A DNA stretch of 28,498 bases from Parvularia atlantis (Eukaryota; Opisthokonta; Rotosphaerida): contig CALSCO010001811.1 of the NCBI GenBank assembly GCA_943704415.1, positions 1-28,498 of the forward strand. The letters are read 5' to 3'. Shown piece by piece: positions 1,447 to 26,753 of this stretch (the stretch's first letter is position 1; the number at the start of each line of letters is the position of its first letter). The notes under the pieces are model-generated. The model did not search any database. It had not been told where the DNA came from and saw nothing but the letters and a program-made list of their open reading frames with translations. A program made the translations under genes and the position numbers.

Positions 1447-4400
1447 ATGGATCTCGGCAGCGAGACCGGCGCGTCGTCGCCGTCTGCGCCGTCCGTGGCC
1501 GCGGCCGGGCGGCGCCTGAGCTTCCGCACGACGTCGCTCAGTGCGCGCTCCGATGATGACACCCGCGCTGCTGTGCTGACGCCCGCGACCGGCGCGGCAC
1601 AGACGCGCTCGCCGCGGCCGTGTCGCTCTCGACGCCAACGCTCTCACGCGAGGCCTCGCCCGCACCCGACGCGCGCCGGCGCGGCAGCCTGAGCGGTGAC
1701 GGCGCGAGCATGACCGCGTCGGTCGAGCAGCACGTGCACAGCGACGGGCGGCTGCGCACGCGCGCCGAGTTTGCCCGCGCCGACCGCCACCGGCAGCGGC
1801 AGCGCGCTCTGCTCTGGCAGCTGCACGAGGCGCACGCGGCGCAGCTGGCCGCGCAGGCCGAAGGGGCGACGGCGGCGCGGCAGCCGATCTCGCGGTGGAG
1901 CAGTGCTGACGGCGATGACGCGCTGACGGGCAAGTTGCGGCGGCGCGGTGCGCGGCGTGTGCGCGCGCCCAGCCAAACATGACAGGCGCGCGGCAGACAA
2001 GGAGCTGCGGCAGCGCAAGGACGTGCTGCGCGAATACGAGCTGCCGCGGTCCAAGGCCATCACCACGACGCTCGCGGCCATCGAGCGGCTCAACTCGTTC
2101 TTCCGGCTGCGTCGCACGAAGCGCAAGTCGTTCGCAGGTGTGCGAAGCAGATTATCTTTACTTGCACCGAATGACGGCGTGCGGCGCGCGCAGAGACGCT
2201 GCACCTGCTGCGGCTGGCGATCCAGGACCACCGCACGGAGCAGGCGATCGAGCTCGCGTCGACATTGCCCTCGGAGCTGATGCGCGCACCGCCGAGCAGG
2301 TGTGCTTCCACGAGGTCATCACGCGAGTGTGCTGACGCGTGCGTGCAGCGTCGTGCAGGTATTCCTCATGGCCATGGCCGAGAACCTGGAGGCGATCGTG
2401 CTGCAGTTTCTGTCGCGCGACTTCCCGCCAGACGTCAACGCGCCGACCTTGACAGCCGTGCTCGACACGCTGCCCGGTACGGCGCTATGTTGTGCGCGTG
2501 TGTGTGCGGGCTCATAGCGTGTGCGCAGAGGTCGAGCTGGATCTGCTGCGCGGCGTGATCCCGGGCTGTGCGTGCGCGCTGGTGTTGGTTGATGTGGGCT
2601 GACGACGCGGCATGCAGCGACGGCGAGCGTGCGGTCGTTTCTGTGCCCGTCCTACTTCATGCTCGCCGTCAGCTACGAGCTCGAGGACGTGGTGATGCTC
2701 ATGCTCAAGGTCTATACGCCGTGCGACGCCCAGTGCAGCTGCTGACGGCGCATCAGGCCGGTGCGTCGCTCACACAGACGTGGTACGGCATGACGCCACT
2801 CCTGCTCGCGTGCTACGTCAACTCGCGCGGCAACGCACGCATCGTCAACTTGCTGCTCGAGTGCGGCGCCGAGCCGGCGCAGGGCATCCCGCTCAAGCTG
2901 TACCGGCTGATGCTCAAGCTGCAAAGGCACGACCGTGCGCGTGTCATGCGCTGATATGGCTGACATCGCGCTGGCAGAACGGTCATCCCCAGGCGGCAGC
3001 AGCAAGAGCTACAAAACGAACAGGCACCGCAGCCACCGCAGCTGCGGCAGCCGCTACAGCAGTCGCAGCACCGCCAGCGCAGCCACTCGCTGCTCTTGCG
3101 CCCGGGAGGGTTCCCGGCAGCGCCCGCCGCCGGAAACGGGCATGCACGCACGGCGTCGCGCTCAAGCTTCTCGGGCAACGTGTCGCGCACGCCTACGCCG
3201 CCACCGTCTGCCGCCGACTCGCGCTCGCCAAAGTGTGCTGCCTGCGCGCTTCCCGCTATGGTGCTCATCCTGCGTGCCCAGCCGCTCGTACATCCGGCGC
3301 GGCAGCATCCCGGCCGTGGTCGCATCCAAGCTGCTGGTGCGCGTGCGCGCGTGCACATGCGCGCAGTACGCGGTCGCGCTGACCGGCGTGCAGGCGCAGA
3401 CACCGGAGGGCAGGGACCACATCTACCCGCTCGACGTGGCCGCCGTGCTCGGCAACCGCGACATTGTGTCGCTACTGCTGTCGCGGTAGGCAGTTGTGCG
3501 CGCTTGCGCAAGACGAGCGAGCTGACACACTACGCGCAGCATGACGCCGGAGGAGGCGCTCCTGTCGCAGACGAGCGTCGCCGTGACCACAGACGTCGTG
3601 ATCCTGGTGCAGCTGGTCGAGGCCGGGCTGCCGGTGACGCAGCAGGACAGCCGGTGCGTGAGGACGTCGTGCATACGCACACAGCTCGAGCTGAGCGCGC
3701 GCCCAGGGGTGCCACGGCGTTCCACACGGCCGCGCGCCGCGGCGACCTCGAGATGCTCGCGGTGATGAAGATGTACCAGTTTCCGCTGAGCATGCCTGGC
3801 GAGCAGGGCCGGTGCGCGCGCTCTCGTTGCGGCGTGCGTGCTGCTGACAGCGACACGCCGCGCCAGCACCGCGCTGCACGAGGCCGTGCTGGGCAACCAT
3901 GCCGAGCTCGCGCAGTGGCTGATCCACCATGGCGCCAAGGTGCGCGGCGATCCCTGCCGCGATGACGTTCCGCTCAGCCGCCCGCGCACAGCTCGACGCC
4001 AGGACAGCCGCAGGCGACACGCCGCACGACCTCGCGCGCAAGTGCGGCCGCGGCGCAGACGACCGCCTGACGCGGCTTGTCGGTGCGTCCGCCCGTCGCC
4101 GTCGTGCGGCGTGCTCACGTGTGGCGCGCGGCAGACCCGGCCAACATCGCCCTGAGCTCACTGCCGCCGTGGGAGCCCGACGCAGTCTCACTCATCGTCA
4201 ACTGCCGCGAGTTCCGCTCGTCGCTGCGGCGCAACTCGTCCGTGCGGCTCGACAAGATCCGCTCCGAGCAGGACATTCGCGTGCGTTCTTGATGTCGTGC
4301 TCGCACCCGCGCCGCTCACGCCTTGCACCGCCCGCAGCGCATGGAGCGCCGGCCGAGCGGGTCCGGCTCCAGCCTCGACGGCTTGGACGGGTCACTGCTG

Positions 4401-4572
4401 AGCGGGTGCGTCCCTGCATGTGGGGCGATCGTGGTCGCGGCTGAACCGTCGCGCCAGGCGCTTCGCGTCCAAGCGCCGCGCCTCGTCCACGCCCATCACC
4501 GGCGCGCCCGACGCACCGCTCCTGAGCATCGTGCACGCGCTCGTGAACGGCGGCGGCAACGGGTCGTCTTGA
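1447..4572 (+). CDS. Ankyrin-repeat protein, 742 residues, 18 exons
   Basis: Exons: 1447-1540, 1603-1947, 1997-2137, 2194-2299, 2349-2476, 2529-2567, 2618-2709, 2757-2926, 2978-3232, 3282-3336, 3394-3485, 3540-3653, 3707-3811, 3867-3939, 3992-4082, 4135-4280, 4338-4405, 4458-4572. Joined they give one open frame. The N-terminus is Ser/Ala-rich, then comes a basic helical stretch (ITTTLAAIERLNSFFRLRR). Two ankyrin blocks follow: the first includes MLKAGASLTQTWYGMTPLLL and NARIVNLLLECGAEP; the second includes YPLDVAAVLGNRDIVSLLL, ATAFHTAARRGDLEMLA and TALHEAVLGNHAELAQWL. They are separated by a Gln/Pro/Ser-rich linker (exon 9). The tail is Ser/Arg-rich. No membrane segment or catalytic domain is visible, so it is probably a scaffold; partner unknown. 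The intron before exon 9 keeps frame only with a GC donor. The ALKBH8-type gene starts 27 bases after the stop. Confidence 0.82.
2927..2977 (+). other. GC-AG intron in the ankyrin gene
   Basis: Donor AAAG|GCACGA, branch GGCTGAC, acceptor GGCAG. The nearby GT donor at 2935 would put the Gln-rich linker in the wrong frame; the GC donor restores TVIPRRQQQELQNEQ and lets all 18 exons close without a shift. Confidence 0.7.
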
Positions 4573-4599
4573 CTGTGTAAGACTCACCAGTTGATCGAC

Positions 4600-5229
4600 A
4601 TGGCATCGCTGCAGCCACCAGGCCTTGCGCTGCACCTGGACTTTGTTACGCCCCACGAGGAGCGCGCGCTGCTGGCCGCGGTGGACGCGCTGCCGTGGGA
4701 GGCGCTGCGGCACCGGCGCGTGCAGCACCACGGCGTACGCTTCATCTACGGTCGCAACGGCGTCGATCCGCGCGCGACGCCGACCGAGCTGAAGGAGGTC
4801 GTGCGCGCGGTGGCCGAGCGGGCGCGGGCGCGCGGCATCGTCGAGTGGGTCGCGGACCAGTGCACGGTCAACGACTACGGGCCGGGCGACGGCATCCCGC
4901 CGCACGTCGACACGCACTCGGTCTTCGAGGAGGCGCTGCTGTCGCTGAGCCTGGGCGCGGCCGTGCCGTTCGAGTTCCGCGCGGCGACGGGCACGTCGCG
5001 GCAGCGCGTCGCCGTCGTGCTGCTGCCGCGCTCGCTGCTTGTGCTGCGCGGCGAGGCGCGCTACGGCTGGCTGCACGGCATCGCCGCGCGCAAGACGGAC
5101 GAGATCGCGCCCGGCGTGGTCGTGCCGCGCGGCCGGCGCGTCTCGGTCCCGTTCCGCAAGGTGCGCGACCCGCCCTGGTGCGCCTGTGCCTACCCGGCTC
5201 TGTGCGACATGCAAGCTGGACAAAGATGA
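4600..5229 (+). CDS. ALKBH8-type AlkB dioxygenase (wobble-uridine hydroxylase domain), intronless
   Basis: An Fe(II)/2-oxoglutarate oxygenase of 209 residues. It aligns in memory with the AlkB domain of human ALKBH8, which hydroxylates mcm5U at the tRNA wobble position. Seen: the iron-binding HVD at residues 102-104 and distal histidine 159 (GWLHG); arginines 180 and 186 (RRVSVPFRKVR) for 2-oxoglutarate and substrate. The ALKBH8-specific zinc site is also present: His106 (HVDTH) with Cys194, Cys196 and Cys202 (CAC then YPALC). Human ALKBH8 also has an N-terminal RRM and a C-terminal methyltransferase; both are absent here, so a separate Trm9-type enzyme would be needed. ATG 4600 is chosen because an in-frame TTG at 4591 is the only upstream alternative. 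It is the only complete gene here without an intron. Its stop is 9 bases from the stop of the convergent Mtd1-type gene. Confidence 0.9.
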   Translation: MASLQPPGLALHLDFVTPHEERALLAAVDALPWEALRHRRVQHHGVRFIYGRNGVDPRATPTELKEVVRAVAERARARGIVEWVADQCTVNDYGPGDGIPPHVDTHSVFEEALLSLSLGAAVPFEFRAATGTSRQRVAVVLLPRSLLVLRGEARYGWLHGIAARKTDEIAPGVVVPRGRRVSVPFRKVRDPPWCACAYPALCDMQAGQR

Positions 5230-5238
5230 AGATGCTCT

Positions 5239-6398
5239 CTAACGCTGCTGGTGGAAGTTGTCGAAGAGCCGCAGGATGTTGCGCTCGAGCATCGCCACGG
5301 TGACCTTGCCCACCAGCGGCACGTACGTCACACCCGGGATGGCCAGCAGGCCGGTCTCGTCCACGTTCTTGAACGTGGACACGTTCACGACGGTCGTGTT
5401 GGGCCGCACCCACGCGCACGGCAGCTGGTACGCCTTGCTCGGCACGCCCGTCACGATCACGTCCGCCTGCCGGCACGCCGTCTCGGCCGTCTCGGCCGTC
5501 TCGAGCAGCTTGCCCTTGCGCATGAGGTAGATCGAGCTGATGTCGATCGAGTACACGTCCGCGCCTGGCCGAGCGGTCAGCACGCACGTGCGCGCGCGCA
5601 CGCTGCCTGCCCGCGCGTGCACCGTCGTTTGCCAGCATCGCGGCCAGCGGCCGCCCGACAATGTCGCTGCGGTTGACGATCACGACGCGCTTGCCGAGCA
5701 GGGGCGCCGCGGGCCCGCCGCTGTACACGCCCAGGTGCTCGAGGATCTTGACGACGGCGAGCGGTGTGCACGGCAGGATGCACTGCGCGCGTGTGCGTGC
5801 ATGTGTGCGCATGAGCCATGCCGTCGTGCGTACGCACGGCCCGCACACCTTGATCGTGTTGCGCGGCGCGTCGAGATAGCGCACGTTGTGGTACAGGTTG
5901 TAGCGGTACGTGTGGCACAGGCCCTCCACATCCTTCTCGACCGCGATGCTGTCGCGCAGGTAGTCGTCCATCGTGCCGCCGTAGAACGAGGGCATCGTGC
6001 CTGCGGCGCGCGTCGGATGAGCGAGAGGACGGGCGCGCATCGCGCGGCGCGCGCACCAAAGACCGGGTAGTAGATCATGATGCCGTGCACGCGCGCGTCC
6101 GCATTGGCCTCGTCCAGCCGCTCGGCCAGCTCGTCGCGTGTGCACCGGCGCAGCTCGTAGCGGATGCCGTCGGCCTCGCACGCCTTGCCCGTCCACTCGG
6201 CGTACTTGACCGCGGCCGGGTCGTCGTTGCAGAGGAAGCCCTTGGGCGCGCTTTGGCGTCAGCTCTCCACGCCGCATCGGGCACGCAGCGCACGATGCGC
6301 ACCACCATCAGCGGCGCGCGCCCCGCGAACCGCGCCGCGATGGCTGCGCGCACGTCGGCGCGGAACGGCGCGGCGACATCGGCTGCATCCACGCGCAT
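5239..6398 (-). CDS. MTD1: NAD-dependent 5,10-methylenetetrahydrofolate dehydrogenase, Mtd1 type
   Basis: Oxidises 5,10-methylene-THF to 5,10-methenyl-THF in cytosolic one-carbon metabolism. Exons in transcript order: 6303-6398, 6057-6240, 5849-6000, 5623-5782, 5239-5564. They give 305 residues, close to yeast Mtd1 (320). Seen: GFLCNDDPAAVKYAEWTGK, GIMIYYPVFG, KDVEGLCHTYRYNLYHNVRY, ILPCTPLAVVKILE, the Rossmann segment VNRSDIVGRPLAAMLANDGA (starting about residue 180) and the C-terminal PLVGKVTVAMLERNILRL. These match the monofunctional fungal enzyme segment by segment rather than bifunctional FolD/MTHFD. All four introns start GTG and end AG. The start is the first ATG of the frame. It shares a 60-base divergent promoter with the GPI-phospholipase D gene. 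Confidence 0.93.
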
Positions 6399-6458
6399 GG
6401 TCAACCAGATGTCGTTTCTTGTGGCCACGTGTTGTGTGACACGACCGGGTTTCCCGCG
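6399..6458. promoter_or_regulatory. 60-base divergent promoter (Mtd1-type / GPI-phospholipase D) with CACGTG
   Basis: Only 60 bases separate the two ATGs. The gap holds a CACGTG E-box palindrome at 6426-6431. Such sites bind bHLH factors (Cbf1-like in yeasts), but CACGTG also occurs often elsewhere in this GC-rich window, so function is only possible. Confidence 0.35.
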
Positions 6459-9453: not shown

Positions 9454-9519
9454 GCGGTCCCTTCTTGACCCCAATACGGCCAGTGCAATACCAGTCTACA
9501 GCTTGTTCACGCAGGCCGT

Positions 9520-12500
9520 TCACGGGTGCGCCAGTGCCTGTGACGGCGTCGGCGACACGGCGGGCAGCGGGGGCGGGTACGCCGGCGGGGGCGGTAGGGG
9601 CTCGCCCTTGGCCAGCCCGTTGGCACTCGCGACGGTCGTGGGCAGCGCAGGGTTGTACTTGACGCGCATGGCGCTGGTGACCGAGCGCGTGGAGATGGCG
9701 AGGTACATGAACGCGATCTTGATAAAGTCGAGCGGGATGTACCACATGGCTGCCAGGCGCGGGTGAGCACCGCACGGCGCGCGGCCACGCACGCACACGC
9801 CCAAAACCACGCGAGACCGGCGTAGGCCCACCCGCAGCCAAAGAATGCATCTGTGTTGCGCGTCAGTCATGCAAGCATCGGAGAAAGACGAGACACCGCG
9901 CACCGCGACCCCAGATGAGCACGTCCGGCTGGACGCCGATGGCCGCCTGCGCGCGCACCGTCAGGCGGGCGCGCGAGTGACGGCAGACAGCAACACGCAC
10001 AACGTCGTACGACGGGTAGCCGTTGAAGCCTGGCCGTGCTGTGAGACCGCGCCCGTGCACGCGCCCGCACGGGAGAGCGCGCACCGTACACGGCGATGAA
10101 CGTGTTGCCGATCTGGGCGACGAGGAACGCGGCGATCACGTACGGCGACGGCATGTCCATCCACGAGAACAGGCGCGAGCGCGTGACAAAGATGAGCGCC
10201 TGGTCGCGCGTCAGCACTGACAGCTGCAGCGCCCGGTCACGTGCACACACCTGGCCCGAGATTGACACCTGAAGGTAGATCAGCCCGCGCAGGCGCGCCT
10301 GGCCCTCGTACGTGTTGACCGCGAGTGGGAACACGCCTGCGCGACGCTGAGCGGCTCACAGGCAGCCGCGCGACCGTGCGCACCCATCTGTACCCACAGG
10401 CTGCGTGTGCATGGCGAGTGGGCACCGTGCTGCGCCCGCACCGGCCGCGCACCTGTTGTCGAGGCTGGCCATCGCAAACAGGATGATGGTCGTTCCGGTC
10501 AGGTACAGCCCTGCGACGGGCGACCTGTCAGGTTGGCTTCGCGTACACGGCTGGTGCGCACCAAAGATGAACGCAAGCGCGAAGAGGCTCTTGAGGCTCC
10601 AGTGGTCCGGCTCGGGGCTCGGCTTGACCCAGTCCTGCGCGGCGTGCTTGTGAGCTGGCGTGGCCGCCAGCACACGCGGGCCGACGCGTGCCTTTGAGAT
10701 CGTGAGCATAGTGCCGTCGTTGAAGATGGCCAGGATGAGGATAAGGATCGGCGGGAAGAACCAGTTGTAGATGCACGTGAGCAGACCGAACGTGAACGTG
10801 ATACGGATGGTCATCGACACCGAGTACGTCGCGTAGTTCTTCATGCGCTGGAAGATCATGCGCGCACCTGTCGCACGGTGTTACCAGGCACGTGCACGCG
10901 CACGGCGCGCACGGCGCGCACCGATAATGGCGTCGATGATCACCGACAGGCCAGGCGTCACCAGGACGATGTCTGCTGCGGCGCGCGCCGCGTCCGTTGC
11001 GCCGGCGACAGCAATGCCAATGTTGCTCTGCTTCAGCGCGGGCGCGTCGTTGACCCCGTCGCCTGCAGCGCACGCATCGGCTCAGCCCGCGGCGTCTCGC
11101 TCGGCCGCGCAGCGCAGCGCACCCGTCATGCCGACTTTGTGGCCCAGGCCCTGCAGGCACTTGACGATCTCAAACTTGTGCTGCGGGAACACCTGCGCCC
11201 GGCGTCGTCTCAGCACCGGCTTCGCGCGCGCATGCCAGCTCAGCAGACCTCGGCAAACCCAGCCGACTCGGCGACGACCTGCTCGGCCGTGAGGGTGCGG
11301 CCGGCCTCGTTGACGCGGCCCTTGCCGAGGAACTCGGTCGTCTGACGTGCGCGTGTGTGCAATGTTGGCCGTGGCAGCGGCGGAGGGCTGCACGCGCACG
11401 TGGATGTTGGTGCTGATGCCGAGCTGGCGCGCGGTCTCCTTGGCGATCGCGAGCTGGTCGCCCGTGATCATCTTGACGGCGATCTTGAGGTCCATCGCCG
11501 CCCTGCCGGGCGGACGTCAGTCTCGCGGCATCGTTCGCCAGCGGTGCCGCACTTGATCGTGGCCGCGGTATCGGCGCGCGGCGGGTCGTACAGCGGCAGC
11601 ACGCCGACCATCTCCCACCGGCGCTCCTCCAGCGGCACGTCACCCGAGTAGCTCTTGCCGACGCCTGGCCCTTCCGCGGTCAGCCGCAACACCGAGCAGT
11701 GGCAGGGCCCGCGGCGCACCGAGCGCGCGGTACCCGCGCGCGGCGTAGTCGGCGATGATGCGGTTGACCTCGTCCTTGACCGCGTCCGAGTCGTGCGCCA
11801 TGCGCAGGATGACCTGTTCGGCGTGAGTGCTTCTACCCGCTGTGTGCGGCGCTGCACGGGCAGACCTGCGGCGCGCCCTTGCACGTGTGGAAGATCGCGC
11901 CCGTGTCGGTCGTCTTGAGCGTCGCGATCGTGCGCTTCTCGATCGGGTTGAACGGGATAAAGTGAACAACCTCGAAGCGCTGCGACCACGTCAGCGGCCC
12001 GGTTCGTCCCAGCGAGCACCACGCACGTGCAGCTCGTCCAGTTGTTGCTCGTCGAGCGTGTTGATGATGGCGATGTCGATCGGCTCCTGGTCGTCCGTGC
12101 GACAGCTCAGGGCGGCGTACTGGATCACCTCGTTCACTGTGTACCGCCCCATCGGCTGCGCTGCCGTCACATCGCGCCGCCGCGCGCGCACAGACGCCGT
12201 CACGCACCACAACCGCACTGCGGTCGATCGAGAGCTTGTTCAGCGTGAGCGTGCCCGTCTTGTCGGTGCAGAGGACGTCCATGCCGGCGAGCTGTACGCA
12301 CCGCCGTTCATCAGCGGCTTTCGCACAAAAGCGCGCGGTGCGCACCTCCTCGACGGCCGTCAGGCGCGAGACGATGGCGTTGCGCTTGGACAGGCGCAGC
12401 GCGCCGATGGCGAGCGTGACGGAGAGCACGGTGGGCATGGCGATGGGGATGCCGCCGACGATGATCACGATGATGTTCTGCGTGCGCCGTGAGCGCGGCC

Positions 12501-14232
12501 CGAGCTCGTTCGGCCATACGGCAGCGCGCACGTTGAGCACGGGGCACTGGTTGTCGCCGGCTGCGAGGCGCGCTGGTTAGCGCGAGCGTGCCGCACACAC
12601 CAGCGCAAGCGCACGCGCACGCGCACCGTAGCAGTAGTTGGTGCCGTAGGGCTGTGTGGGTGCGCGCTGTGTAAGCCAACCGAGCGAGTGGCGCTCGCGG
12701 CACGCACGTTTGGCGCGCGCGGGTCCTGCGAGCCGACCGGGTACGCCTGGTTGTCGCCGAGGCGGTTCTTAGAATTGACGACGCCAAACTGGACGATGAG
12801 CTCGATCAGGACCCAGACGAAGATGGACGTGAGGCAGACGTAGCCAACCTTGTTCATGATCTGGCGCGCGCACGCCACCCCGCGCGTCAGCATCATGCGT
12901 GCGTGCTCACGCGGCGTGCCGACTGCAGATGACCCGTCTTATTGACGTCCTCCAGCAGCGACGCCGCACGCCCAAAGAACGTGCGCGCGCCTGCGCAAAC
13001 GCGGCGATCAGAACGAGTGTGCGCGCGCCCACGAGAGGTGTGCACTTCACCGGTCGAGTGCACCACGGCCTCAATCTCGCCCTGCTTCACAACCGAGCCG
13101 GCAAAGGCCTCGTCGCCGGCCACCTTCGACACTGGCAGCGACTCGCCCGTGAGCGCGGCCTGGTCAATCTTGACCGACTCGCCCTGGATAAGCTTGATGT
13201 CGGCTGCGCGCGGGCAACGGGTCAGGCGGGCGGGCGGCCGGCCCGGTGCCGCCGCACCGGGGATGATGTCGCCGATGCGCACGCGGATGATGTCGCCGGG
13301 CACGAGCTTGGCCGACGGCACGGACTTGAACTCGCCGCTGCGCAGGACGCGGCTCTGGTTCTCGAGCTGCGCCGCGCCGCGTTTGGGCTGGTGCCGCGAC
13401 ACATGCACACACGCGGCGGCGGCGCACCTGCGACTTGAGCGCGGCCACGGCGCTGCCGGCCGTGCGGTCCTCGTACCACCCAATGGTCGCGTTGATCGTG
13501 AGCAGGAAGATGATCAGGCCAAAGTCGGCGTAGTCGAGCAGCACGATCGAGATGATTGCCGCGCCCTCCATCGCCCACGCGAGCGGATTCCAGAAGAAGC
13601 TGCCGCACGCGCTTAAGCCGCGGCCCTGCTCGACCGCGCGCGGCGCGCACCCGAGGAACACCAGCAGCTCGTTCTTCTTGTGCTCGGTGATCATGTTCTG
13701 ACCAAAGAGGCCCAGCCGGCGCTCGGCCTCCTCGTCCGTCAGGCCGTCCATCGACGTGCGCAGGCGCTCAAGCGCGACGTCGCGCGGGATGTCCTGTGCA
13801 CGGCGCGTCCCGCTAAGCGGGCGGTGGCGTCCGGCAGCGCGCGGGGCACCTTGACGGGCGTGTTGTCGTCGTCGCGCTTGATCACGATCTCCGCGGCCTC
13901 GCCCGTCAGTGTCGGTGCGCGTGTCGGCGCCCGTCCTCGCCCTCGCCCGCGTTCGCGTCGGCCGCGCGTGTCGCCGGCAGCATCGGCCGCCGGCTGCGGC
14001 GCATCGGCCTCCGGGAGCTGCGCGCGCGCCGCGTCGGCTGCGCGGTTCAGCGCGGGTGTCGCGTCGGGCTGTCCGGCCTGTGCGCGCGCCGCGAACGTCA
14101 GCGGCCGCCGTGCAGCGAAGCGCGCCGGCGGACCGTCGTGTCGGCCTGGGCCATCGCCTCGGCCACGGGCATCGGCTGGCGCACGCGCGCCTCGCCCGGC
14201 GCCGGGAAGACGTTTGTTGGCATGCGTTCCAT
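9520..14232 (-). CDS. PMA1: Plasma-membrane H+-ATPase, P-type class IIIA, 29 exons
   Basis: Electrogenic proton pump of the plasma membrane. Transcript-order exons: 14134-14232, 13850-14077, 13651-13793, 13428-13599, 13258-13366, 13051-13203, 12911-12990, 12708-12860, 12627-12651, 12346-12560, 12208-12291, 12027-12155, 11866-11979, 11720-11813, 11553-11664, 11400-11502, 11249-11341, 11123-11192, 10922-11062, 10686-10867, 10562-10634, 10453-10510, 10384-10400, 10251-10336, 10085-10199, 10004-10038, 9904-9946, 9797-9850, 9520-9749; 1069 residues, one open frame. Seen: [21 protein letters not shown] (269-272), phosphorylation site CTDKTGTLT (Asp469), [31 protein letters not shown] (726-733), C-terminal membrane helices and a Pro-rich tail after [19 protein letters not shown]. 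Odd: about 58 residues between helices M3 and M4, where the family usually has about 10. The junction after GHLQ is the least certain. Confidence 0.95.
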
Positions 14233-14418: not shown

Positions 14419-15472
14419 TCATGACCGCGCAGGCGCCGCGGGCAGCCCAAACTCGTCCACTTGCGCCCCGCCGGCCGGCACGGCGGCGGGCACCTGGGCG
14501 CGATCGGGCGGTGAGCACGCGGGGTCACACGAGGGCGCACAAGCCGCACCTCGGGTAGCCGCGGCTCGCGCGTGGGCACGGCCGGTGCGTCGTCAGCCAA
14601 GTACGACGGCTCCTCCTCGGCCACATCGAGGTCGTTCCCGAGCGCGTCGAGCTCTGCGGCGCGTCAGGCGCTGCTTGCGTGGGCCGCGAGCGGCAGCCGC
14701 ACGCGCCTGCGTCGAGGTCGTCCTCGTCGATCTCGTCGGGCACGCCGTACGAGCGGCTCATCACCTCCTGGATCTCGTTGGCCTGTTCCATCATGTCCTC
14801 CATTTCATCGCGCACGTCCTGCGCGCGTGTCGCTGTGCCGTGAGCTGGCGCTGGGGCGAGCGCGCAGTGTCTTTCGCACGCACCTCAATCTTGTCGATGT
14901 TGATGTTCTTGTACTGCTTCTTCATCTCCTTGTTGGCCTCCTTCATCGCGGCGACCTGGCCGTGGACGGTGTGCGCGTGAGCGTGCTGCGCAGCCGCGCC
15001 GGCCGGCCGCCTGCGCGCACGGTCTCGATCGTCCCGCGCAGGCTCTCGGCCGTGAAGCTGGCCTGGTCCATGTTGAACGACTGCTGCATCATCTGGTCGC
15101 GCTGGCCTTCATACATCTTCTTCTGCTTGAGCAGGAGCATCGCCCGGTTCTTGAGCGATTGCTGCGCGGGGCGGCGCGCGCCCGTCGGTCCACGTGTGGC
15201 GAGCGAGCGCGCGCCGCACCTTGGCGGACCCGTTCGGCATGCGGTTCATCTGGTCGCGCATCTTCTTCAGCTCCGCGTCGAGCTTGGCGATCTTGCCGTC
15301 AATGTCGGCCGTGCGCGTGTCGGTCTGCGCGGGCCGTGCGCCGTGCGTGAGCGCTGCTGACGTCGACGTGTCCGGGGGCGTGCCCAGCGCGGGGTGACCG
15401 CACCCGCTTGATCGCGTCCTGCAGCGTCGGCTTGGGCGCCGGCGGCTTGGACGTGCCGAAGATGCGGTTCAT
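14419..15472 (-). CDS. VPS60: ESCRT-III subunit Vps60/CHMP5, 225 residues
   Basis: Snf7-family protein acting late in multivesicular-body sorting, recruiting Vta1/LIP5 to Vps4 (family knowledge). Transcript-order exons: 15404-15472, 15220-15324, 15021-15161, 14884-14955, 14707-14818, 14550-14653, 14419-14493. Seen: start [98 protein letters not shown] and the C-terminal VDEFGLP signature. Human CHMP5 (219 residues) shows the same blocks in the same order. The basic N-terminal helices and acidic C-terminal half are typical. The intron after residue 172 uses a GC donor. It is divergent from the GLYR1-type gene. Confidence 0.95.
14654..14706 (-). other. GC-AG intron in the Vps60 gene
   Basis: Donor GCAG|GCGCGT, branch CCTGAC, acceptor CGCAG. 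It joins DEDDLDA to [11 protein letters not shown] exactly as in CHMP5. The GTGCGG five bases downstream would shift the frame. Confidence 0.8.
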
Positions 15473-15671: not shown

Positions 15672-17050
15672 ATGGCCGCCGCGAATGCCGCCAAGGTCGG
15701 CTGGCTGGGTCTGGGCATCATGGGCCGGCCGATGGTGCAGAACGGTGCGTTGTGGCGCGGGCGTGTTGGGGGTGGGGGCAAGCGCTCTGAACGACAGTCC
15801 GCGCCCCCCTCGCCGTCCGTCCGTCCGTCCGTCCGTCCGTCCGTCCGCCCGCAGTCATCAAAGGCGGACACGCCGTGAACGTGTGGAGCCGGACCGCGAG
15901 CAAGGCGCAGGAGCTCAAGGCGGCCAACGCGGCGGGCATGGTCAATGTCTTTGTGTGTGCGCCCTCGCCAGCAGCGCTGCATGCTGACCGCGCGCCCGCG
16001 CAGAACACGCCCGCCGACGTCGTCAAGAACAGCGTCATCACGTTCAGCATGCTGGCCGACCCGTCCGCGGTCGACCAGGTGTACTTTGGCAAGGATGGCG
16101 TGAGCAAGACGCTGACATTGGTGCGCGGTGCTGCGCCTGTGCCTGCGCCTGTGCGGCACTCCAATGCGCGCGACACGCGCGCCACAGGGGAAGAGCATCA
16201 TCGACATGTCGACAGTCGACGCCGCCACGAGCCTAAGGCTCGCCGCGGCCGCAGACAGCGCGAGCGGGAGGTATCTCGAGGCGCCCGTGAGCGGGAGCAA
16301 GCGGCCGGTGCGACGCGCCGCGTGTGCGAGTGTGCCGCGGCGTTGCTCAGCGTGCCGGCGCGACGCGCGCGCATGCGTTAAGGCGGAGGAGGCGCAGCTG
16401 ATCGTGATGGCCGCGGGCGACGCGACGCTGTACGACGAGGCGCTGCCCTACTTCAACCTCATGGCGAAGAAGTCGTTCTTCCTAGGCGAGGTCGGCCAGG
16501 GTGCGTCCGTCGCAGCGGCTGCGTGTGGTGTGTGCGTGTGCTGCACTGTCGCTGACGCTGTGCGCGCGCAGCCGCAAAGACCAAGCTCGTGATCAACATG
16601 TTCATGGGCGGGATGATGGTTGTGCTGTCCGAGGCGCTGATGCTGGCCGAGAAGGCCGGCGTGAGCAACGAGCAGCTGCTGCAGATCCTCCACCTAAGCG
16701 CCGTGGGCAACCCGATGATCGCGTACGGGCAACGTGTGCGCGTGCGGTGTGATCTGACGGCGCTCGTCGCAGCAACAAGGGCCCGCTCATGCGTGCGCGC
16801 TCGTACCAGCCCGCGTTTCCGCTCAAGCACCAGCAGAAGGACCTGCGGCTGGCGCTGGACATGGCCACAGGTGGCGCATGCAAGAGGCGCGCCGCGGTCG
16901 CCACCCGGGTTGACTCTCGCCGCAGACCTCTCGCTCGCCCTGCCTGTCACAGCCGCGGCCAAGGAGCGGTACGACCTGGCCGAGAAGCTCGGGCAGTCAA
17001 ATCAGGACTTCAGCGCCGTGCATGAGATCCTCGTGAAGACACGGGTGTGA
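15672..17050 (+). CDS. GLYR1-type glyoxylate/succinic-semialdehyde reductase (beta-hydroxyacid dehydrogenase family), 297 residues
   Basis: NAD(P)-dependent dehydrogenase. Its closest match by eye is plant GLYR1, which reduces glyoxylate and succinic semialdehyde; substrate here is inferred. Exons: 15672-15744, 15855-15940, 16004-16120, 16188-16307, 16383-16500, 16572-16728, 16773-16870, 16926-17050. Seen: Rossmann GLGIMG (residues 13-18), VWSRTASKAQEL, substrate loop DMSTVDAATS, EAPVSGSKRP, VMAAGD, FFLGEVGQAAKTKLVINM with the family's catalytic Lys region, GPLMRARSYQPAFPLKHQQK and the DFSAV tail. No targeting signal or peroxisomal SKL is obvious. Intron 1 holds a CCGT microsatellite. Intron 6 needs a GC donor. 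Confidence 0.93.
15813..15847. repeat. CCGT tetranucleotide microsatellite
   Basis: Eight perfect CCGT units plus a partial one, inside intron 1 of the GLYR1-type gene, ending just before the acceptor. It replaces the usual pyrimidine tract and makes this the longest intron in the window (110 bases). Confidence 0.95.
16729..16772 (+). other. GC-AG intron in the GLYR1-type gene
   Basis: Donor ACGG|GCAACG, branch TCTGACG, acceptor CGCAG. It joins NPMIAYG to NKGPLMR, matching the plant homologue. The GTGTGC six bases downstream would put PLMRARSYQP out of frame. Confidence 0.7.
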
Positions 17051-17908
17051 CAGAATGTGACAGGACGACGGCGGCACAACCGATCGCTTTATCAGCGCCG
17101 GCAGCGGCGGTTGACGACAGCCCGCTCCAGCCCCCGTGCGCCTCCCGCCGGCGCACTCTGCTCCTGCGCGGCGCTCGTGTCGCGCGCCAATCCCAGCGCC
17201 GCGTGGCCCTGTTCTCAGCAGGCGTCGAGGTGAGATTGCGCGTCGGAGGTTTTCCTGCTCCACCGTTCCGTCGCCGCGCCGCCGTCTGCGCGCCGCCGCC
17301 TCCGCCGCTGCGGCAAATCGCGCAGTCCGCGCGCAACCTCCGCCTGTGCCCTTGCGCCGCGGCCACCCTGCGCCCGCCGCCTGCCAGCGCGGCGCGGCGG
17401 GCTGATCACGTCAGCTGACCTGTCGCAAACTGAGCCGCTGCTCCGCGGAAGGGCCGTGTGCGCCGCAGGTGCGTCGGGCGCGACGCGGGCCGGCCGGGCA
17501 GGGGTTGCCGCGCGCGCGTCGTTGCGCGGCCGGCAGATCGCGGTCGGCAGCGCGCGGCAGATTGCGCCGGCGATCGAGGGTCGCTGGGCGCCCTGAGTGC
17601 CTGTCCCTTTTTTTTCTTCCTCTTTGCCGTCCGCTGCTGCCACGCACATCTCGCCGCGCGGCGCCGTCGTGGCACGTGCGGCGCGCGTGTCGATTTGGCA
17701 CCGCGGCTGCCCAGAGATCGACTAGGCACGGGCACTGTGCCCTGCCGCCCGTGCGCGCGATATGGCAGGCCGCGTTGCCGATGATTGGGTTGCGGTCCGC
17801 CGCGCGCCGGTGGCTGACGCGCGCGCGCCGCGCCCGGAACCGCAGGCACGCACACCAGGCACGCGCGAGCTGACGGAGCACCGCGCGCCCGTGACCAGTC
17901 GGCCGCCC
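17051..17908. other. Longest non-coding stretch, upstream of the GATA-factor gene
   Basis: 858 bases between the dehydrogenase stop and the chosen GATA-factor ATG. Open frames on both strands look like low-complexity Arg/Ala shadows. It holds a pyrimidine-rich run near 17605-17630, one TTATCA (GATA-factor consensus on the other strand) at 17089-17094 and a 13-base palindrome GGGCACTGTGCCC near 17727-17739. Probably 3' region, promoter and 5' leader; non-coding exons are possible. The region is larger than any other gap here, which fits a regulated transcription-factor gene. Confidence 0.5.
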
Positions 17909-18272
17909 ATGGCTTCGTCATCGCCGCCGCCGCCGCCCTGGGGCGAGGGCGACGAGCGTGCGGCCGCGGCTGAGCCCGCCGCTCATCAAGCATCCGCTGG
18001 CAGCCAAGGCACCCGGCGGACGCACGTGCGCGCAGACCGAGCCCCTGCGCCGCCCCGGACGCCGGCCGAGCCCGCGCACGGCTTCGACGATACGACCGCG
18101 CGCAGCCTCATGGCCATGTCGGCCGGGCAACGCTACCAGTGGCAGAACGACGCACGGCCGCCGCACGCCGCCGAGCACCAGCTGCCCGCGGCCCTGCCAC
18201 CCGGCGCGCCGATGGACATGTCGTGGGACACGAGCGCCACCCTCGGCTATGTTTACCCGCCGCCGCCGTCCA

Positions 18273-18308
<36 letters not shown>

Positions 18309-20123
18309 CCATGCTGTCGGCCTCGCTGAACCGGACAATGCAGCCTCACGCCCTGCCACAGCAGCGGTCGTCGAGACCGCCGACGGGCGGCACGCCTAAC
18401 GCGTTCCTAAACGGCCTGAACACGACCAACATGCAGCGCGTGCACGCCCCAGCGTACGGCGCACCCGTCGACGCTGTGTCGGGCCAGCCGTTCCACATCG
18501 CTATGATGCCAGCGCTCATGCCCACGCCCGACTTGGGCATGATGTGGCAAGCCGGGCGCCCGGTCCCGAGCTTCGACCCTTCTGCACCGCATTACATACT
18601 CGCCCAGCAGCCCGCTCCGTTTGACTACGCGCCGCGGGCCCAGCTGTCGTACCCGCACGCCGCCGAGCACAGGCAGGCGCCGCGGCCCTGGCAGCACAAC
18701 GCGTGGTGCGCGCTCCACGCTCGATCATCGCGGTTGAGGCTGAAACCGACCGTCGCGTCTTGGCAGGGCCAGCACCCACAGCGGGCCGATGAAGCTCTAC
18801 GCCACGGCGCCCTACCCGCTCGAGCCTGTGTCGACGCTGCACGTGCGGCCGCCGCCACAGCCCAGATCGCGCGCGGGCAAGGCTGCGCCTCTGGCAAACG
18901 GCACGAGGCGCTTTCTCTCGTTTTTTTTTTTTTTGCCGCACACTGGGCTCATGCACGCATGCAGACGGCGTGTGGGCCAGCCGTGCGCCGGACGCCGGGC
19001 CTGCGGCGCGACATGCCGACCACAGTGACGCTGCGCCCAGGTGGCGTGCGCCGCGCAAGGAGCCTGCGAAGCCTGGTGTGCCACGCGTGACGTGCCTGTG
19101 TGACGTCGAACCCCTGACGCTCCCGTCAGCGCGCGTGCACAGCACCGAGGGTGGGTCAAGCGGTGCCACCGCGCTTGTCAAGACCGACGCCGGCGAGGGC
19201 GGGGAAGCGTCCGCCAGCGGGTCTGGTGAGGTCGCGCCCGGCTCGATGCTTGCAGTCAAGGCGGAGCACTTCGACGACAACGAGGCCGCGACCACCACGC
19301 GCATGTGCAGCAACTGCCACACGACGAGCACCAACAGCTGGCGGCGCGGCGGCCCGACCAAGGTCGAGGTCCTCTGTGCGTTTTTGGCCCGTGAGCTCGC
19401 GGAGCGCGGCTGACCGCGGCTGTCGCGCTCGCAGGCAACCGCTGCGGCCTGTTCTGGCGCGACCACCTGCAGCACCGGCCTAACAACGTCATCGGCCGGC
19501 CCATGCACATCCCGCGCGTCGTGCGGACGCGCCCGCCCTCCGCCGGCCTGTGTAAGAACTGCGGCGTGACGTCGTCGCCGACGTGGCGGCGCGGCCCGCA
19601 CGGCATGCGCCTGTGCAACGCCTGTGCGTGCTGCTCATCGGCGGCGCACGGTAGGCGGTGCTCACACGCGCTCTGCGACACAGGCGGCATCTACTGGCAG
19701 CAGCAGCAGGAGCTCCGGCCGATCGGACTCGCGCTGAAGATGCTCAAGAATGGGCCGCAGCGGCGCCCGCGACGGCGCTACGCCCTGCCCGCGTTTATGC
19801 CAGACGGCGAACAGAACGACAGCGGCCGCGGCAGCATGAGCAGCGACGTGCCACTGCGCGAGGGCGGCGATGCACAAAAACAGCAGCAGCAAGCTCGCAA
19901 GCGGACGCGGCCTTCACGAGCCGCTGCAGCATCAGGAGGCGGTGGTGGAAAGGGGCACGGTGCTGGCGCCGTGCCGCCGCTTGAGGCGACGGACGACGGC
20001 TTGGGCGACGACGACGAAGACGACGACGACGGCGAAGACTACGACGATGACGACGACGACGACCAAGACGCGCCCCTCGACAAGGACGACGGGCCATACC
20101 GTGCGGGGCGCAAACTGAAATGA
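17909..20123 (+). CDS. GATA-type transcription factor with two zinc fingers, polyglutamine and acidic tail, 638 residues
   Basis: DNA-binding regulator. Exons: 17909-18705, 18767-18900, 18965-19075, 19130-19375, 19435-19623, 19684-20123. Seen: a Pro/Gln/Met-rich N-terminal half with Q11 at residues 123-133; basic stretch APRKEPAKP; finger 1 CSNCHTTSTNSWRRGG...CNRC (Cys407, 410, 430, 433; 19 residues in the loop); finger 2 CKNCGVTSSPTWRRGPHG...CNAC (Cys469, 472, 490, 493; canonical 17-residue loop). The tail has basic PRRRYALP, then long Asp/Glu runs. Paired fingers 35 residues apart recall animal GATA factors or fungal siderophore regulators; I cannot choose between them. An in-frame ATG at 17762 would add 49 Arg/Pro-rich residues; 17909 is preferred because protein-like sequence starts there. 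Intron 2 needs a GC donor. Confidence 0.88.
18275..18307 (+). repeat. CAG/CAA run encoding polyglutamine
   Basis: Eleven Gln codons (ten CAG, one CAA) in frame in the GATA-factor gene, in a Pro/Gln-rich presumed activation region. Length is probably variable between strains. Confidence 0.97.
18901..18964 (+). other. GC-AG intron in the GATA-factor gene, with a 14-base poly-T
   Basis: Donor AACG|GCACGA, identical in its first six intron bases to the ankyrin-gene GC donor; acceptor ATGCAG. A run of 14 T lies at 18921-18934. GT choices nearby either break frame or make a 125-base intron. The flanks here are low-complexity, so this is less certain than the others. Confidence 0.55.
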
Positions 20124-20233
20124 TAAAAGCTGCATGCCAAGTTTGTTTTCTTGACACCGCAAAACCCATCTACACCACACACGCACACGGGCGCGCTTGG
20201 AGCAGGAGGCGGGAGCAACGGCCGCGCAGCCGC
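20124..20233. other. 110-base convergent intergenic gap
   Basis: Lies between the stops of the GATA-factor gene and the glutathione transferase gene. An A-rich TGATAAAAG overlaps the GATA-factor stop codon and may help 3' end formation. No other signal seen. Confidence 0.4.
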
Positions 20234-21343
20234 TCAGCGGAACAGGGCCGACTTGCCGTTGATCGGCAGACGCGTGTCGCGCACCTGCTTGATGTACGCG
20301 GCCAGCGTCGGCAGGGCCTGCGTGCACTGCGTCAGCGCGGCGCGCGAGGCGTGCGCGGCGCACCTCGATGCGCTTGTGGAACTTGAGCAGGTTCTCGAAG
20401 CCGGCCATGGCCTCGGCGTTGAAGATCAGGAGCGTATCGATCAGCTCAAACAGCAGGAAGTCGACGAAGGTGCTGGCGGCGCGCGGCAGCGTGAGCCCAC
20501 ACCAGCGCGATCATCGACAGTGCACGCGCACATGTGCGAGCCGGCGGCGTACTCGTGGCCCTTCATGAACTCGTCCAGCAGCTTGCCGTGCGTGGGGATC
20601 GTCTTGGACAGCATCTTTGCCTTGAGCTCGCTCTGCGCCGACGGTCAGCGGCCGCCCACGGCTGGCACAGCGGCGCACGAAGGCCGGCTCGGACGAGTAC
20701 GCCATCCTCACGAACGGCTCGCGAAGGTCGATGATCTGCGGCGACGCTCAGCGACGCGCACGGGGGCCGCGCACGCAGCGCACCTGGAAGTGCAGCATGT
20801 CGAGGCGGATGCGCTCGTCCTCGGTCTTGGCGTCTGGCGCGGCCCGTCAGCCCGCGCAGAGGGGCGCGGAGACGGCGCGCGCGCGCACCGAGGTCGAACT
20901 TGCGGGCGAGGTAGCGGATGATGGCCGCGCTCTGCGTCAGCTTGCGGTCGCCGTCGATCAGGTACGGCAGCTGGTCGCCCGCGTGGCTTTGTCAGCAGCG
21001 CCCTCAACACACGGCCGCCACCGCGCACGTTCGGGAAGTCGAGGCCGAGCGCAAACTTCTCCTTGTACCACTCGTCACCGTCCGTGTGCATCTGCGCGGC
21101 CGCGGCGCGCCCGCAACCCGCCGTCAGGCCCCGCCAGGTGCGCTGCTTACGAGATCCTTCCACGCGCGACGCACCTTGTCCTCGAACGGCGTCTGCGTGT
21201 AGTGCAGCAGCCAGCGGATCGGCTGCGCGAGGCCGCGAATGTCCCCTGTGCGCGTCCGCGGCCCCTGCGTCAGCCGCGGTGACGTCGTGCGGTCGGGCTG
21301 AAGGCGACGCGGGCGCACAGTAGGCGAGCTTGAGCAGAGCCAT
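20234..21343 (-). CDS. Glutathione S-transferase, mu-like, 213 residues
   Basis: Cytosolic enzyme joining glutathione to electrophiles. Transcript-order exons: 21319-21343, 21175-21245, 21029-21091, 20889-20970, 20784-20833, 20679-20735, 20532-20632, 20364-20472, 20234-20317. Seen: N-terminal LAYWDIRGLAQPIRWLL with the family's catalytic Tyr at residue 8; WYKEKFALGLDFPN; thioredoxin-fold proline in LPYLIDGDRKLTQS and the glutathione-binding Gln-Ser before AAIIRYLARKFDL. The helical half has KTIPTHGKLLDEFM, HITFVDFLLFELIDT with the N-cap motif Thr-x-x-Asp, and AMAGFENLLKFHKRIE. Order and length match animal mu-class enzymes (about 218). The first exon codes only eight residues plus one base. 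It shares a 97-base promoter with Timeless. Confidence 0.94.
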
Positions 21344-21385
21344 GTGCGCTCGATCGGCTGCGAAAGTGTGTACATAGTCTCACGG

Positions 21386-21390
21386 CCAAT
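21386..21390 (+). promoter_or_regulatory. CCAAT box
   Basis: GGCCAATAGG lies near the middle of the divergent promoter. The flanks fit the NF-Y/HAP core, which acts in both orientations. Confidence 0.45.
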
Positions 21391-21418
21391 AGGCTGCACA
21401 TTGAAGGGTAACACAGTT

Positions 21419-21430
21419 TTTGGCGCGAAA
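21419..21430. promoter_or_regulatory. E2F/DP-type palindrome TTTGGCGCGAAA
   Basis: A perfect match to the E2F consensus TTTSSCGC on both strands, ending 10 bases before the Timeless ATG. Placing it on a replication-fork gene fits G1/S control by E2F (animals, plants, chytrids) or MBF (yeasts). Function is inferred. Confidence 0.6.
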
Positions 21431-21440
21431 CCGTTTGAAG

Positions 21441-21733
21441 ATGGCGCCAAGGCCGCCGCTGGACGACGACGACGACGAGGACGAGGAGGCAGCGCAGGCG
21501 CGGCGGACGTACGGCGACGAGGAGGCCGAGGAGAACAGCGAGGACGAGCGCGAGGGCGGCGAGGACGAGGACGAGGACGGGGACGGGGACGGGGAGGGCG
21601 ACGACGGCGATAGCGGCGACGAGGAGGACGCGGCCAAGCGGCGCGCCGAAGACGACGACGAGGAGCGCGCGGTGGCCGACGCCGAGCGCGACGAGTACGA
21701 GCGCGGGCGGCGGTTCATTGTGAACGACGACGA

Positions 21734-21767
<34 letters not shown>

Positions 21768-24700
21768 GACCGCGACGGCAGGGCGGACGGCGACGACGAC
21801 GCGCGCAGCGTGCGCAGCAGCCTTCGCAGCGACAGCGTCCTCGGGCGCGCGCGCCACCCAGCCGCCGACGAGGCCGCGCGGCGCGAGGCGCTGCGTCTGG
21901 TTGGCGAGGCCGCACGCAAGGCGCGCGGCGCGGGTGGCAAGGCGCAGGCCGCCAAGACGACGCTCTTGCGCGACGAGCTCGGCGCGCCCGCCGCGGGGCT
22001 GCGCCCGGACGAGGTCGCGCGGCTGGTCGAGATCTGCGCCGCGGTCGGCGGCTACGAGCCGGACGCCGAGGGCCGCCGGGTCTACGTCAAGGGCGACGAG
22101 TGCCTCGGTGCGGCGCCGACTTGCGCGCCACGGTGCTAATCGCCGTCGCGGCCGCAGAGTGCCTGGGCGACCTCCAGCGCGCGATCCGCCGCGACAACGA
22201 GGAGACGAACGGCGTCGTGCATCAGCTGATGCGCTGGGGCGTCGTGCAGCGTGATCTCGTGCCGATCGTGCAGACGTACCGCACAGACAAGCCGCTCTGC
22301 TGCGCAGCGCGTGCGTCGCCTGTCGCTTTGCGCGCGCCGTCGAGACCGCTCACGCCCTCCGCGCGCGCACCGCAGTGCGACTCATGGTCTACATCACGCG
22401 GCCGATCGCCCTGCTCAAGACCGACCCCGAGGGGCACCTGCAGGCACGCGCGCACAGCCACTGCCGTCGCACAGCTGACGGGTGCGCCGCTTGCAGTACA
22501 TGCACGACCACAAGCTCGCGCTGCTCGGCCGCGACATGCTGCCGCTGCTCGTGAGCATGCTGCTGCAGGCCGTGGCGGTGCCGGCCGAGTGCGTGCGCGC
22601 GCGCGCGGCGCTGTCGTGCGCCTGACCCGCTACCGCCGTCAGAGAGCGCGAGGCGCCCGAGCTCGAGGTGATCACCAACGTCCTGCAGCTGCTGCGCAAC
22701 ATTGCGCTCGTGCCGGACGGGTGCGCCTCGCGCCGAACGCTCGTGCTGGATGCTGACGGCCACGCGTCCCGGCAGCCTGCAGCGCCACCTCGCGTCGAGC
22801 GACAAGTCGCCGCACATCCACGACTACCTCATCACGCGGTTCGCCAACGAGCAGGTGTTTGAGCTGCTGACGACGATCGCGAGCTCGATCGACGAGGAGG
22901 TGCGCGCGCACGGGCATTCGTTTGGGTGCAGCGTGTCTCACGCACGCGGCGGGCGCAGTCCAAGAGCAAGCTGCAGATCGACCACCTCATCCTCGAGATT
23001 CTCTACCTGTGCTTCTACCAGACCACGCCGGACGCGATCGCGCGCGCCAAGCAGCTCGTGCGCCGCGTGCCCGCCGCACCTCCCGCGACGCACCGCTGAC
23101 GCACACGCCTCAGGGCGCGGCCGTCGACGTGTCGCGCGACAATCTGCAGCGCGCCGTCGAGGCCGAGCAGCTGCGCAAGCACCGCGAGCAGGCTGTCGCG
23201 CCGGCGGTTGAGGGCGCCGGGCGGCCCCTGGTGCAGCTCAACGGCAGGGTGCCGTGGGCGCGGCACGCACGGTTCGGTGGGTGCTTCTGGCGCAAGACGC
23301 TGGTGCGCACGGCGCCGGTTGCCGGGCGTCAGGGGCTGATTGGGTGCGCGCGCGTGAGCAGGACGGCGACCGTCTGGCCGTCAAGGTTAGCAAGCGCACG
23401 GTGCTCGACAACAGCCTCGACACCAAGAAGAAGATCTGGAAAATCGGCAGCGGCGGCAGGAAGGCCGGCGAGGTCGTGGTGCGTCGCGGCCGCCTCCCCG
23501 CCGTGCATGCCCAGGCTCACGCTCCCGCGCAGACGATGTTTGCCGACAGTGACGCGCGCATCGGCGCCGAGGCGTGCTGTGCGCTGCGCGAGGTCGCCGA
23601 GGAGTTTCTGGAGACGGGCTACCACTGCACGTCGTCGCCGCTGCCGCCGCTGCCGCGCGATGCTGACGCGCTGCGGAACCGCAGCCCTCCTGTCGCACAC
23701 GTTCAAGCGGTTCAAGCGCAGCTCGAGCAGCGTGCCCGAGAAGGACGTTACGCACTTCTTGTGGCTCGAGGCGTTCTTCCTGCGGTACTTTTTGCTGACG
23801 CGGCCCAACGCGGGCCAGACGGTGCGGCGCTGCGGCTCGCCGCGCACTGCCCCACTCACGCGCGACGGCGTCGCAGCCGACCGAGGGCGTCCACCCGTTT
23901 GGCCACATTGGTGTGTCGATGGAGCTCGAGACCGTCCGGTTCATGTTGCAGCGGGCAAAGGGTGAGTACCTGACCGACACGCCCAAGAACTGGACGATGG
24001 TGCACGTGTCCCTCGTCGTCCTGCGTGAGAAGGTGCTGCTGCGCACGTCTGCCCCCCCCCCCCCCCCCTGCGCACTGACGCAGATGACGGCGGTGCTCGC
24101 AGCTGCGCGTGCTCGACCTGATGCAGAAGAGCGTGCACGAGCCCTCGCAGGAGTTTGCCAAGCACCTGCAGAACAACCTCTACTACGACAGCACGATCAT
24201 CGGGCTGATCAAGGAGGCGTGGAAGACGTTCAAGCAGCAGGGCCACGAGTGCGGCGCCTGTGCAACATGCGCGACGCCCTGCTGACGCCCGCCCTCGCGC
24301 GCACAGGTACCTCCACGTGCTAGTCGAGGTCACGCACCTGCTCATCAAGCTCGTCGAGACCTTCACCAAGTCCAAGAACGGCATCGTCGTGTCCAAGAAA
24401 GTGCGCCGGCGTAAGCGCAAGACGGGTGCGTGTGGCGCGGCCGCGTTAATGCACACTGACGTCGCTGGCGGGTTTGGTGTGCAGCGTATACCGAGGCCGG
24501 CATAGAGACGGAGGAGCACGGCGAGGAGGCCGGGCAAGGGCCGGCGCAGGAGGACTACGTCACACTGGAGAAGGCGTTCGAGCTGGACGCGTTCATGAAG
24601 GTAGCGATGGGGCGCGTTGCTCCGTGCGGCTGAGCACACAACGGGTGGCAGTCGTTCTTCGAGGACGAGGTCATCTCGGCGTACTGCGACGTGCTCGGGC

Positions 24701-26563: not shown

Positions 26564-26753
26564 CGCACGTGACCGAAGAGTGTGACAGTCAGTGCGGCTA
26601 GCGCGGCTAGCGCGGCTGGCGACGACTGGAAGCTGCCCGTTGCGACGTAGTCGACCGAAAGACGTGTGCCGCTGACTGCGCGAGAAGGAGCTTGAGCAGT
26701 ACCCCGCCATCGACGGCAGCACGGTGCTCGGACTGCGCGAGATTCAGGACACA

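What the first reader, a model, noticed from the sequence alone, without database searches (positions are those of the whole stretch)
2927..23684. Recurrent GC-AG introns with a shared GCACG donor
In five unrelated genes (ankyrin, Vps60, GLYR1-type, GATA, Timeless twice) the only splice that keeps frame and restores conserved protein starts with GC, not GT. Four of the six begin GCACG, one GCAACG and one GCGCGT, whereas most GT donors here read GTGCG. The A at +3 fits compensation for the U1 mismatch. Six among about 110 introns is well above the roughly 1% GC-AG usual in animals and plants.
Basis: partly seen in the sequence, partly recalled or inferred. Interest (0 to 1): 0.75.

Follow-up and report, generated by a model that had tools for sequence, protein, structure and literature searches.

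The report
GC-AG introns in GC-rich eukaryotic DNA
A few introns in this very GC-rich eukaryotic DNA start with GC instead of GT, which looks real but fits a pattern already described for other GC-rich genomes; what stands out is that the third base changes from G to A along with it.

Summary
Partly right. A gene finder trained on the window itself favours GC over 14 other non-GT donors: gain 47.9 nats, next 20.1; GC is again first with the tested gene left out. Likely or possible: 2927-2977, 27570-27629 (new), 12861-12919 (new). A is at +3 in 6 of 7 GC donors but 4 of 111 GT donors (p = 4e-7), although +3 was not scored. That argues against miscalled GT donors and fits compensation for a weak +2. 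The share, 4 to 7 of 118 (3-6%), exceeds the usual 1%, but raised GC-AG shares in GC-rich genomes are published (Aureococcus 39.6%, Micromonas pusilla 22.2%, Chlorella 7.7%, Emiliania 56-65%). No RNA data; species unknown.

The parts
22444..22496 (+). GC-AG intron in Timeless, donor CAG|GCACGC, branch site GCTGAC
   Evidence: restores VYITRPIALLKTDPEGHLQ, +14.8 nats; Pfam TIMELESS 151.3 v 129.8 bits. In one search the restored part aligns to Timeless 7pfo but with gaps, one of five residues ending two residues before the junction
23627..23684 (+). GC-AG intron in Timeless, donor ACT|GCACGT, branch site GCTGAC
   Evidence: restores CALREVAEEFLETGYH, +5.0 nats; this stretch aligns without gap to Timeless 7pfo, from EEF on without gap to 6xwx, and with a one-residue gap to yeast-type chain 6skl
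14654..14706 (-). GC-AG intron in CHMP5/Vps60, donor CAG|GCGCGT, branch site CCTGAC
   Evidence: restores [13 protein letters not shown], +14.8 nats; Snf7 160.9 v 131.0 bits; CHMP5 chain 2lxm has ELDEDDLEAELDALG, gapless over the junction
10635..10691 (-).
   Evidence: +3.3 nats; gapless to 5ksd NDGTIMTISKDRVKPSP when removed, 19-residue gap when retained
2927..2977 (+). probable GC-AG intron in ankyrin gene, donor AAG|GCACGA, branch site GCTGAC
   Evidence: +5.2 nats; junction not tested by homology (one search ran only the GC version)
   Evidence: +3.6 nats; no Pfam match for either version or for a piece at E up to 1; PDB not searched
12861..12919 (-). possible GC-AG intron in H+-ATPase, donor TCG|GCACGC; a GT donor, GTGAGC, nine bases further in would add residues ARR
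   Evidence: model indifferent (-0.1 nats; not called); E1-E2_ATPase 134.2 v 130.4 bits; gapless to 5ksd there, three-residue gap with ARR
16723..16772 (+). GT-AG intron in GLYR1-like dehydrogenase, donor GTACGG, in place of the claimed GC-AG intron 16729-16772
18901..18964 (+). claimed GC-AG intron in GATA gene, not supported
   Evidence: -9.5 nats against the GT-only parse; low-complexity stretch, not tested by homology

Best explanation
These are ordinary U2-type introns whose donor has C instead of T at +2. Shown by computation: at four sites the GC donor is needed to restore conserved protein, the predicted branch sites and acceptors are like those of GT introns, and +3 is A where GT introns have G. 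Inferred: T-to-C change at +2 is favoured by the base composition of a genome of about 70% GC and survives where A at +3 (pairing with U1), G at +5 and often AG at -2/-1 (4 of 7) make up for the lost pair. GT donors can afford G at +3 because they keep +2. One weak position, +2 or +3, is tolerated, but seldom both.
For: Of 15 non-GT dinucleotides GC gains most: 47.9 nats, next AC 20.1; with the tested gene left out of training 50.3, next CA 23.3 at prior 0.01, and 64.2, next CA 31.1 at prior 0.05. Much of the gain of the other dinucleotides falls at the 3' ends at or near 14654 and at 22496, so an intron seems to end there without a usable GT donor. Pfam and PDB comparisons at CHMP5, Timeless and H+-ATPase. 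A at +3 in 6 of 7 GC donors and 4 of 111 GT donors, p = 4e-7; in 3 of 4 secure ones, p = 6e-4. Matches to the U1 consensus outside +2: mean 5.0 for GC and 3.6 for GT donors.
Against: No transcript data, and U1 of this species was not seen. +4, +5, the exon bases, branch site and acceptor were all part of the score, so agreement there is partly built in (+3 was not). CHMP5 has G at +3. Over the whole donor GC is 5.0 v 4.6 without G-U pairs but 5.1 v 5.6 with them, so the GC donors are not stronger overall. If every GC call of the laxest run is counted (prior 0.05: 11 calls), A at +3 falls to 6 of 11. At that prior controls also called 0 to 8 sites each, so the small gains at 2927 and 27570 are not proof. 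A whole-window run gave GC a gain of -110.8 (see Tried and rejected). Some GT introns in the comparison are surely modelled wrongly.
Confidence: 0.76

Rival explanations
1. The C at +2 is a sequencing or assembly error and the donors are really GT.
For: No reads or second assembly could be checked.
Against: Miscalled GT donors should carry the usual G at +3 (101 of 111); instead 6 of 7 carry A. An error at +2 would not change +3.
Confidence: 0.03
2. GT donors nearby are used, and the reader and the gene finder misplace the junction.
For: Best reading for GLYR1 (16723, GTACGG) and open for 12861-12919 (GTGAGC).
Against: At CHMP5 and the two Timeless sites the best GT-only parses delete 11 to 19 residues net, and at H+-ATPase 10635 the GT-only parse keeps 19 extra residues; homologues side with the GC versions.
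Confidence: 0.09
3. The GC introns are recent copies of one mobile intron family (introners), which would explain the shared donor.
For: Introners are known from Micromonas and Aureococcus (recalled), which also have many GC-AG introns (PMC3033335, passages). Local alignment scores among the window's introns are slightly above shuffled ones (mean 7.8 v 6.9; best 18 v 16).
Against: No pair stands out: five pairs share the best score of 18, and of the three best pairs printed one holds a GC intron (23627), matched to a GT intron. The shuffle keeps base counts only, so shared word use may explain the small excess.
Confidence: 0.03
4. The GC donors mark regulated or inefficient splicing; the introns at 10635 and 27570 stay coding if retained.
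For: GC donors are enriched in alternatively spliced genes of human, nematode and Arabidopsis (PMC2490688); 3 of 7 GC introns are multiples of three.
Against: So are 39 of all 119 modelled introns. Retention at 10635 would put 19 residues into a conserved part of the pump.
Confidence: 0.09

Closest known systems
GC-AG introns of GC-rich algae (Aureococcus anophagefferens 39.6%, Micromonas pusilla 22.2%, Chlorella sp. 7.7%; PMC3033335, passages)
   Same: High genomic G+C and a GC-AG share above the 1.3% found over 61 species.
   Different: Lower share here (3-6%), one contig of an unidentified species with dense introns of about 55 bases. The same paper finds only 2.7% in Micromonas RCC299 and a weak correlation with G+C outside those three species. 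Donor logos were not seen.
GC-AG introns of Emiliania huxleyi (PMC4028052, passages)
   Same: GC-rich genome, GC donors with AG acceptors; the authors name base composition as the probable cause.
   Different: There GC is the majority donor (56% of curated, 61% of Cufflinks, 64-65% of hand-inspected junctions; 39% in filtered ESTs); here GT remains dominant.
Mammalian GC-AG introns (PMC2490688, part 1 of 2 of the text)
   Same: The rest of the donor keeps closer to the consensus and seems to make up for C at +2.
   Different: Here GT donors have G at +3 in 91% and C at +4 in 85%, so A at +3 in GC donors is nearly a switch.

Membership tests
GC-AG U2-type intron | GC at +1/+2 and AG at the 3' end, junction needed by the coding frame | tested here: met
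   four sites by score and homology, two by score alone, one open
GC-AG U2-type intron | donor otherwise closer to the U1 consensus | tested here: met
   A at +3 in 6 of 7 v 4 of 111; 5.0 v 3.6 matches outside +2; over the whole site 5.1 v 5.6 once G-U pairs are counted
GC-AG U2-type intron | U2-type branch site, no U12 signals | tested here: met
   best-scoring branch site CTGAC or CTCAC in 7 of 7, though it is part of the score; no RTATCCT on either strand, two TCCTTRA matches in the window, neither in a GC intron
GC-AG U2-type intron | spliced RNA joins these exons | not testable with these tools
   no transcript data; no whole genome held
GC-AG excess of GC-rich genomes | high G+C together with a GC-AG share clearly above 1-1.3% | tested here: met
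   67-72% GC in 2-kb windows; 6 or 7 of 118 exceed 1% (P 0.001, 0.0002), the 4 secure ones alone only marginally (P 0.03); one contig only
introner (mobile intron) family | introns share sequence along their length | tested here: inconclusive
   best pair score 18 v 16 in shuffled introns, mean 7.8 v 6.9; no pair stands out

The most novel reading that the evidence does not exclude
This lineage has two donor classes, GTGCG and GCACG, that differ at +2 and +3 together and behave as alternatives, because the spliceosome here reads +2 and +3 as a pair (for example through two U1 variants, or a changed U1 or U6 whose pairing fits C at +4), rather than through ordinary tolerance of a weak +2.
Probability: 0.06. 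Interest if true: 0.65.

Novelty: new member of a known kind. Interest (0 to 1): 0.3.

Why it matters
With only GT donors allowed, the gene finder mis-models four junctions in three genes (it drops conserved residues or leaves an intron in the coding frame), so annotation of GC-rich protists should allow GC donors. The near-exclusive pairing of C at +2 with A at +3, in DNA whose GT donors have G at +3 and C at +4, offers a natural test of how U1 pairing sets donor tolerance.

Tried and rejected
The first gene finder collapsed into one chain of 340 'introns' and was discarded. The second uses normalised scores and 36 seeds of the form GTGCG...TGAC...AG, so its donor matrix starts from that motif. 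Whole-window runs with one extra donor each gave negative gains for 7 of 15 dinucleotides, GC among them (-110.8), while AC had the best gain, 20.1. In one search the tested gene is left out of the training set, but the training introns are parses made by the full model.

The GC call 13889-14029 was dropped: at prior 0.02 AC, CG, GA and GG donors also called an intron with that 3' end.

Relatives: a scan of genome contigs with part of Timeless gave one locus, L001, from a record titled Methylocystaceae bacterium; the match is 39 residues at 44% and contains an exact pattern word; I judged it chance and dropped it. No Rfam family or tRNA was found in the window, so U1 could not be read, and the species stays unknown. 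Paper searches on GC donors in haptophytes (0 papers) and on GTGCGT donors (2 papers, listing only) gave nothing used; passages of PMC8379373 say nothing on donors. CpG decay as the link between GTGCG and GCACG (each one deamination from GCGCG) was considered; CpG is not depleted (observed/expected 1.29).
Full report
What the window is. GC-rich eukaryotic DNA (67-72% in 2-kb windows) with no Rfam or tRNA hit. No whole genome is held for it. A small semi-Markov gene finder trained on the window itself (codon use, donor, branch site, acceptor, intron length) gives 11 gene chains with 114 GT introns. I then set 13 gene regions by hand: B-box/NHL, ankyrin, 2OG oxygenase, tetrahydrofolate dehydrogenase, a phospholipase C/FG-GAP protein, plasma-membrane H+-ATPase, CHMP5, GLYR1-like, GATA, glutathione transferase, Timeless, NUDIX, and one without a Pfam match (names). 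GT introns have a median of 55 bases; donors read GTGCG in 82 of 114, and GCTGAC (30) and GCTCAC (15) are the commonest of 114 branch sites.

Are the GC donors real? Each of the 15 non-GT dinucleotides was allowed as a donor in turn at the same prior (0.02), with +3 left out of the score. GC gains 47.9 nats; next are AC 20.1, CA 18.4, TG 16.6 and CG 16.0. Much of what the others gain falls at the 3' ends at or near 14654 and at 22496, where GC gains too, which suggests that introns end there with no usable GT donor. With the tested gene left out of training, GC gains 50.3 against 23.3 for CA (prior 0.01) and 64.2 against 31.1 for CA (prior 0.05), and all seven GC sites discussed below are called at both priors. 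Six of them were called; 12861-12919 was not. An earlier whole-window run gave GC a negative gain; see Tried and rejected.

Site by site (best parse with the one GC intron minus best GT-only parse, prior 0.02). CHMP5 14654-14706: +14.8; the GT-only parse has AQ in place of [13 protein letters not shown]; Snf7 160.9 v 131.0 bits; CHMP5 chain 2lxm carries the matching ELDEDDLEAELDALG. Timeless 22444-22496: +14.8; GT-only loses 19 residues; TIMELESS 151.3 v 129.8 bits. The restored part aligns to chain 7pfo, but with gaps close to the junction. Timeless 23627-23684: +5.0; GT-only loses 16 residues that align without gap to chain 7pfo. Ankyrin 2927-2977: +5.2, junction not tested by homology. Gene at 27.6 kb, 27570-27629: +3.6, no Pfam match. 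H+-ATPase 12861-12919: -0.1; the GC version is gapless there and scores 134.2 v 130.4 bits, but GTGAGC nine bases on would only add ARR. GLYR1 16729-16772: -7.4; donor GTACGG at 16723 gives NPMIANKGP, while the GC version has two extra residues against all 5 PDB chains shown of 85 matched (the GT version was not run against PDB) and scores 90.1 v 96.0 bits. GATA 18901-18964: -9.5.

The donor. Among the seven GC donors +3 is A in six and G in one; among 111 GT donors it is G in 101, A in 4, C in 4, T in 2 (Fisher p = 4e-7; for the four secure sites 3 of 4, p = 6e-4). Were all 11 GC calls of the laxest run taken, it would be 6 of 11. After a GC dinucleotide anywhere in the window, A follows in 18-19% of cases and ACG in 3.4-3.6%, so base composition does not explain it. 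If the Cs were miscalled Ts, G at +3 should prevail. Outside +2 the GC donors match the U1 consensus at 5.0 positions on average and GT donors at 3.6; over the whole site the means are 5.0 and 4.6, or 5.1 and 5.6 with G-U pairs. This fits compensation, not a donor that is stronger overall. Branch sites, acceptors and lengths look like those of the GT introns. No RTATCCT motif of the U12 type is in the window; two TCCTTRA matches occur, neither in a GC intron.

How often. Four secure, six probable or seven at most of 118 introns: 3.4, 5.1 or 5.9%, with 95% intervals 0.9-8.5, 1.9-10.7 and 2.4-11.8%; against 1% the P values are 0.03, 0.001 and 0.0002, against 1.3% they are 0.07, 0.005 and 0.0009.

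What is known. GT-AG makes up 98.3% in animals, 98.7% in fungi and 97.9% in plants (PMC7072748, passages); GC-AG is 0.8% in human protein-coding genes (PMC7242645, passages) and 1.3% of 2.46 million introns of 61 species (PMC3033335, passages). [quoted passage not shown] Emiliania huxleyi uses GC donors for 56% of curated and 64-65% of hand-inspected junctions, with 9 GC junctions checked by RT-PCR and Sanger sequencing (PMC4028052, passages). PMC2490688 (part 1 of 2) states that GC donors keep closer to the consensus elsewhere, apparently as compensation. The finding is therefore a new instance of a known phenomenon. What I have not seen described, in the searches, is a near-complete switch from GTGCG to GCACG; figures are not held, so donor logos in those papers were not visible to me.

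Verdict.

Noticed in passing
   Followed up: yes
window 16723-16772 (+): GT donor GTACGG explains the GLYR1 junction better than the claimed GC donor; it is one of only four GT donors with A at +3.
   Followed up: yes
window 15745-15854 (+): The first GLYR1 intron seems to be 110 bases and carries a tandem CCGT repeat; the gene finder chose an earlier acceptor (15797) that adds 19 odd residues.
   Followed up: partly
window 9520-14223 (-): H+-ATPase with 28-30 modelled introns, closer to plasma-membrane ATPase 2 of 5ksd (774 bits; a plant enzyme, recalled) than to the fungal 1mhs and 7vh5 (510 bits); may help to place the species.
   Followed up: partly
window 26744-28292 (-): Gene with five or six modelled introns and no Pfam match.
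   Followed up: partly
whole window: GT donors have G at +3 in 91% and C at +4 in 85%, a consensus that pairs poorly with the usual U1 at +3 and +4.
   Followed up: no
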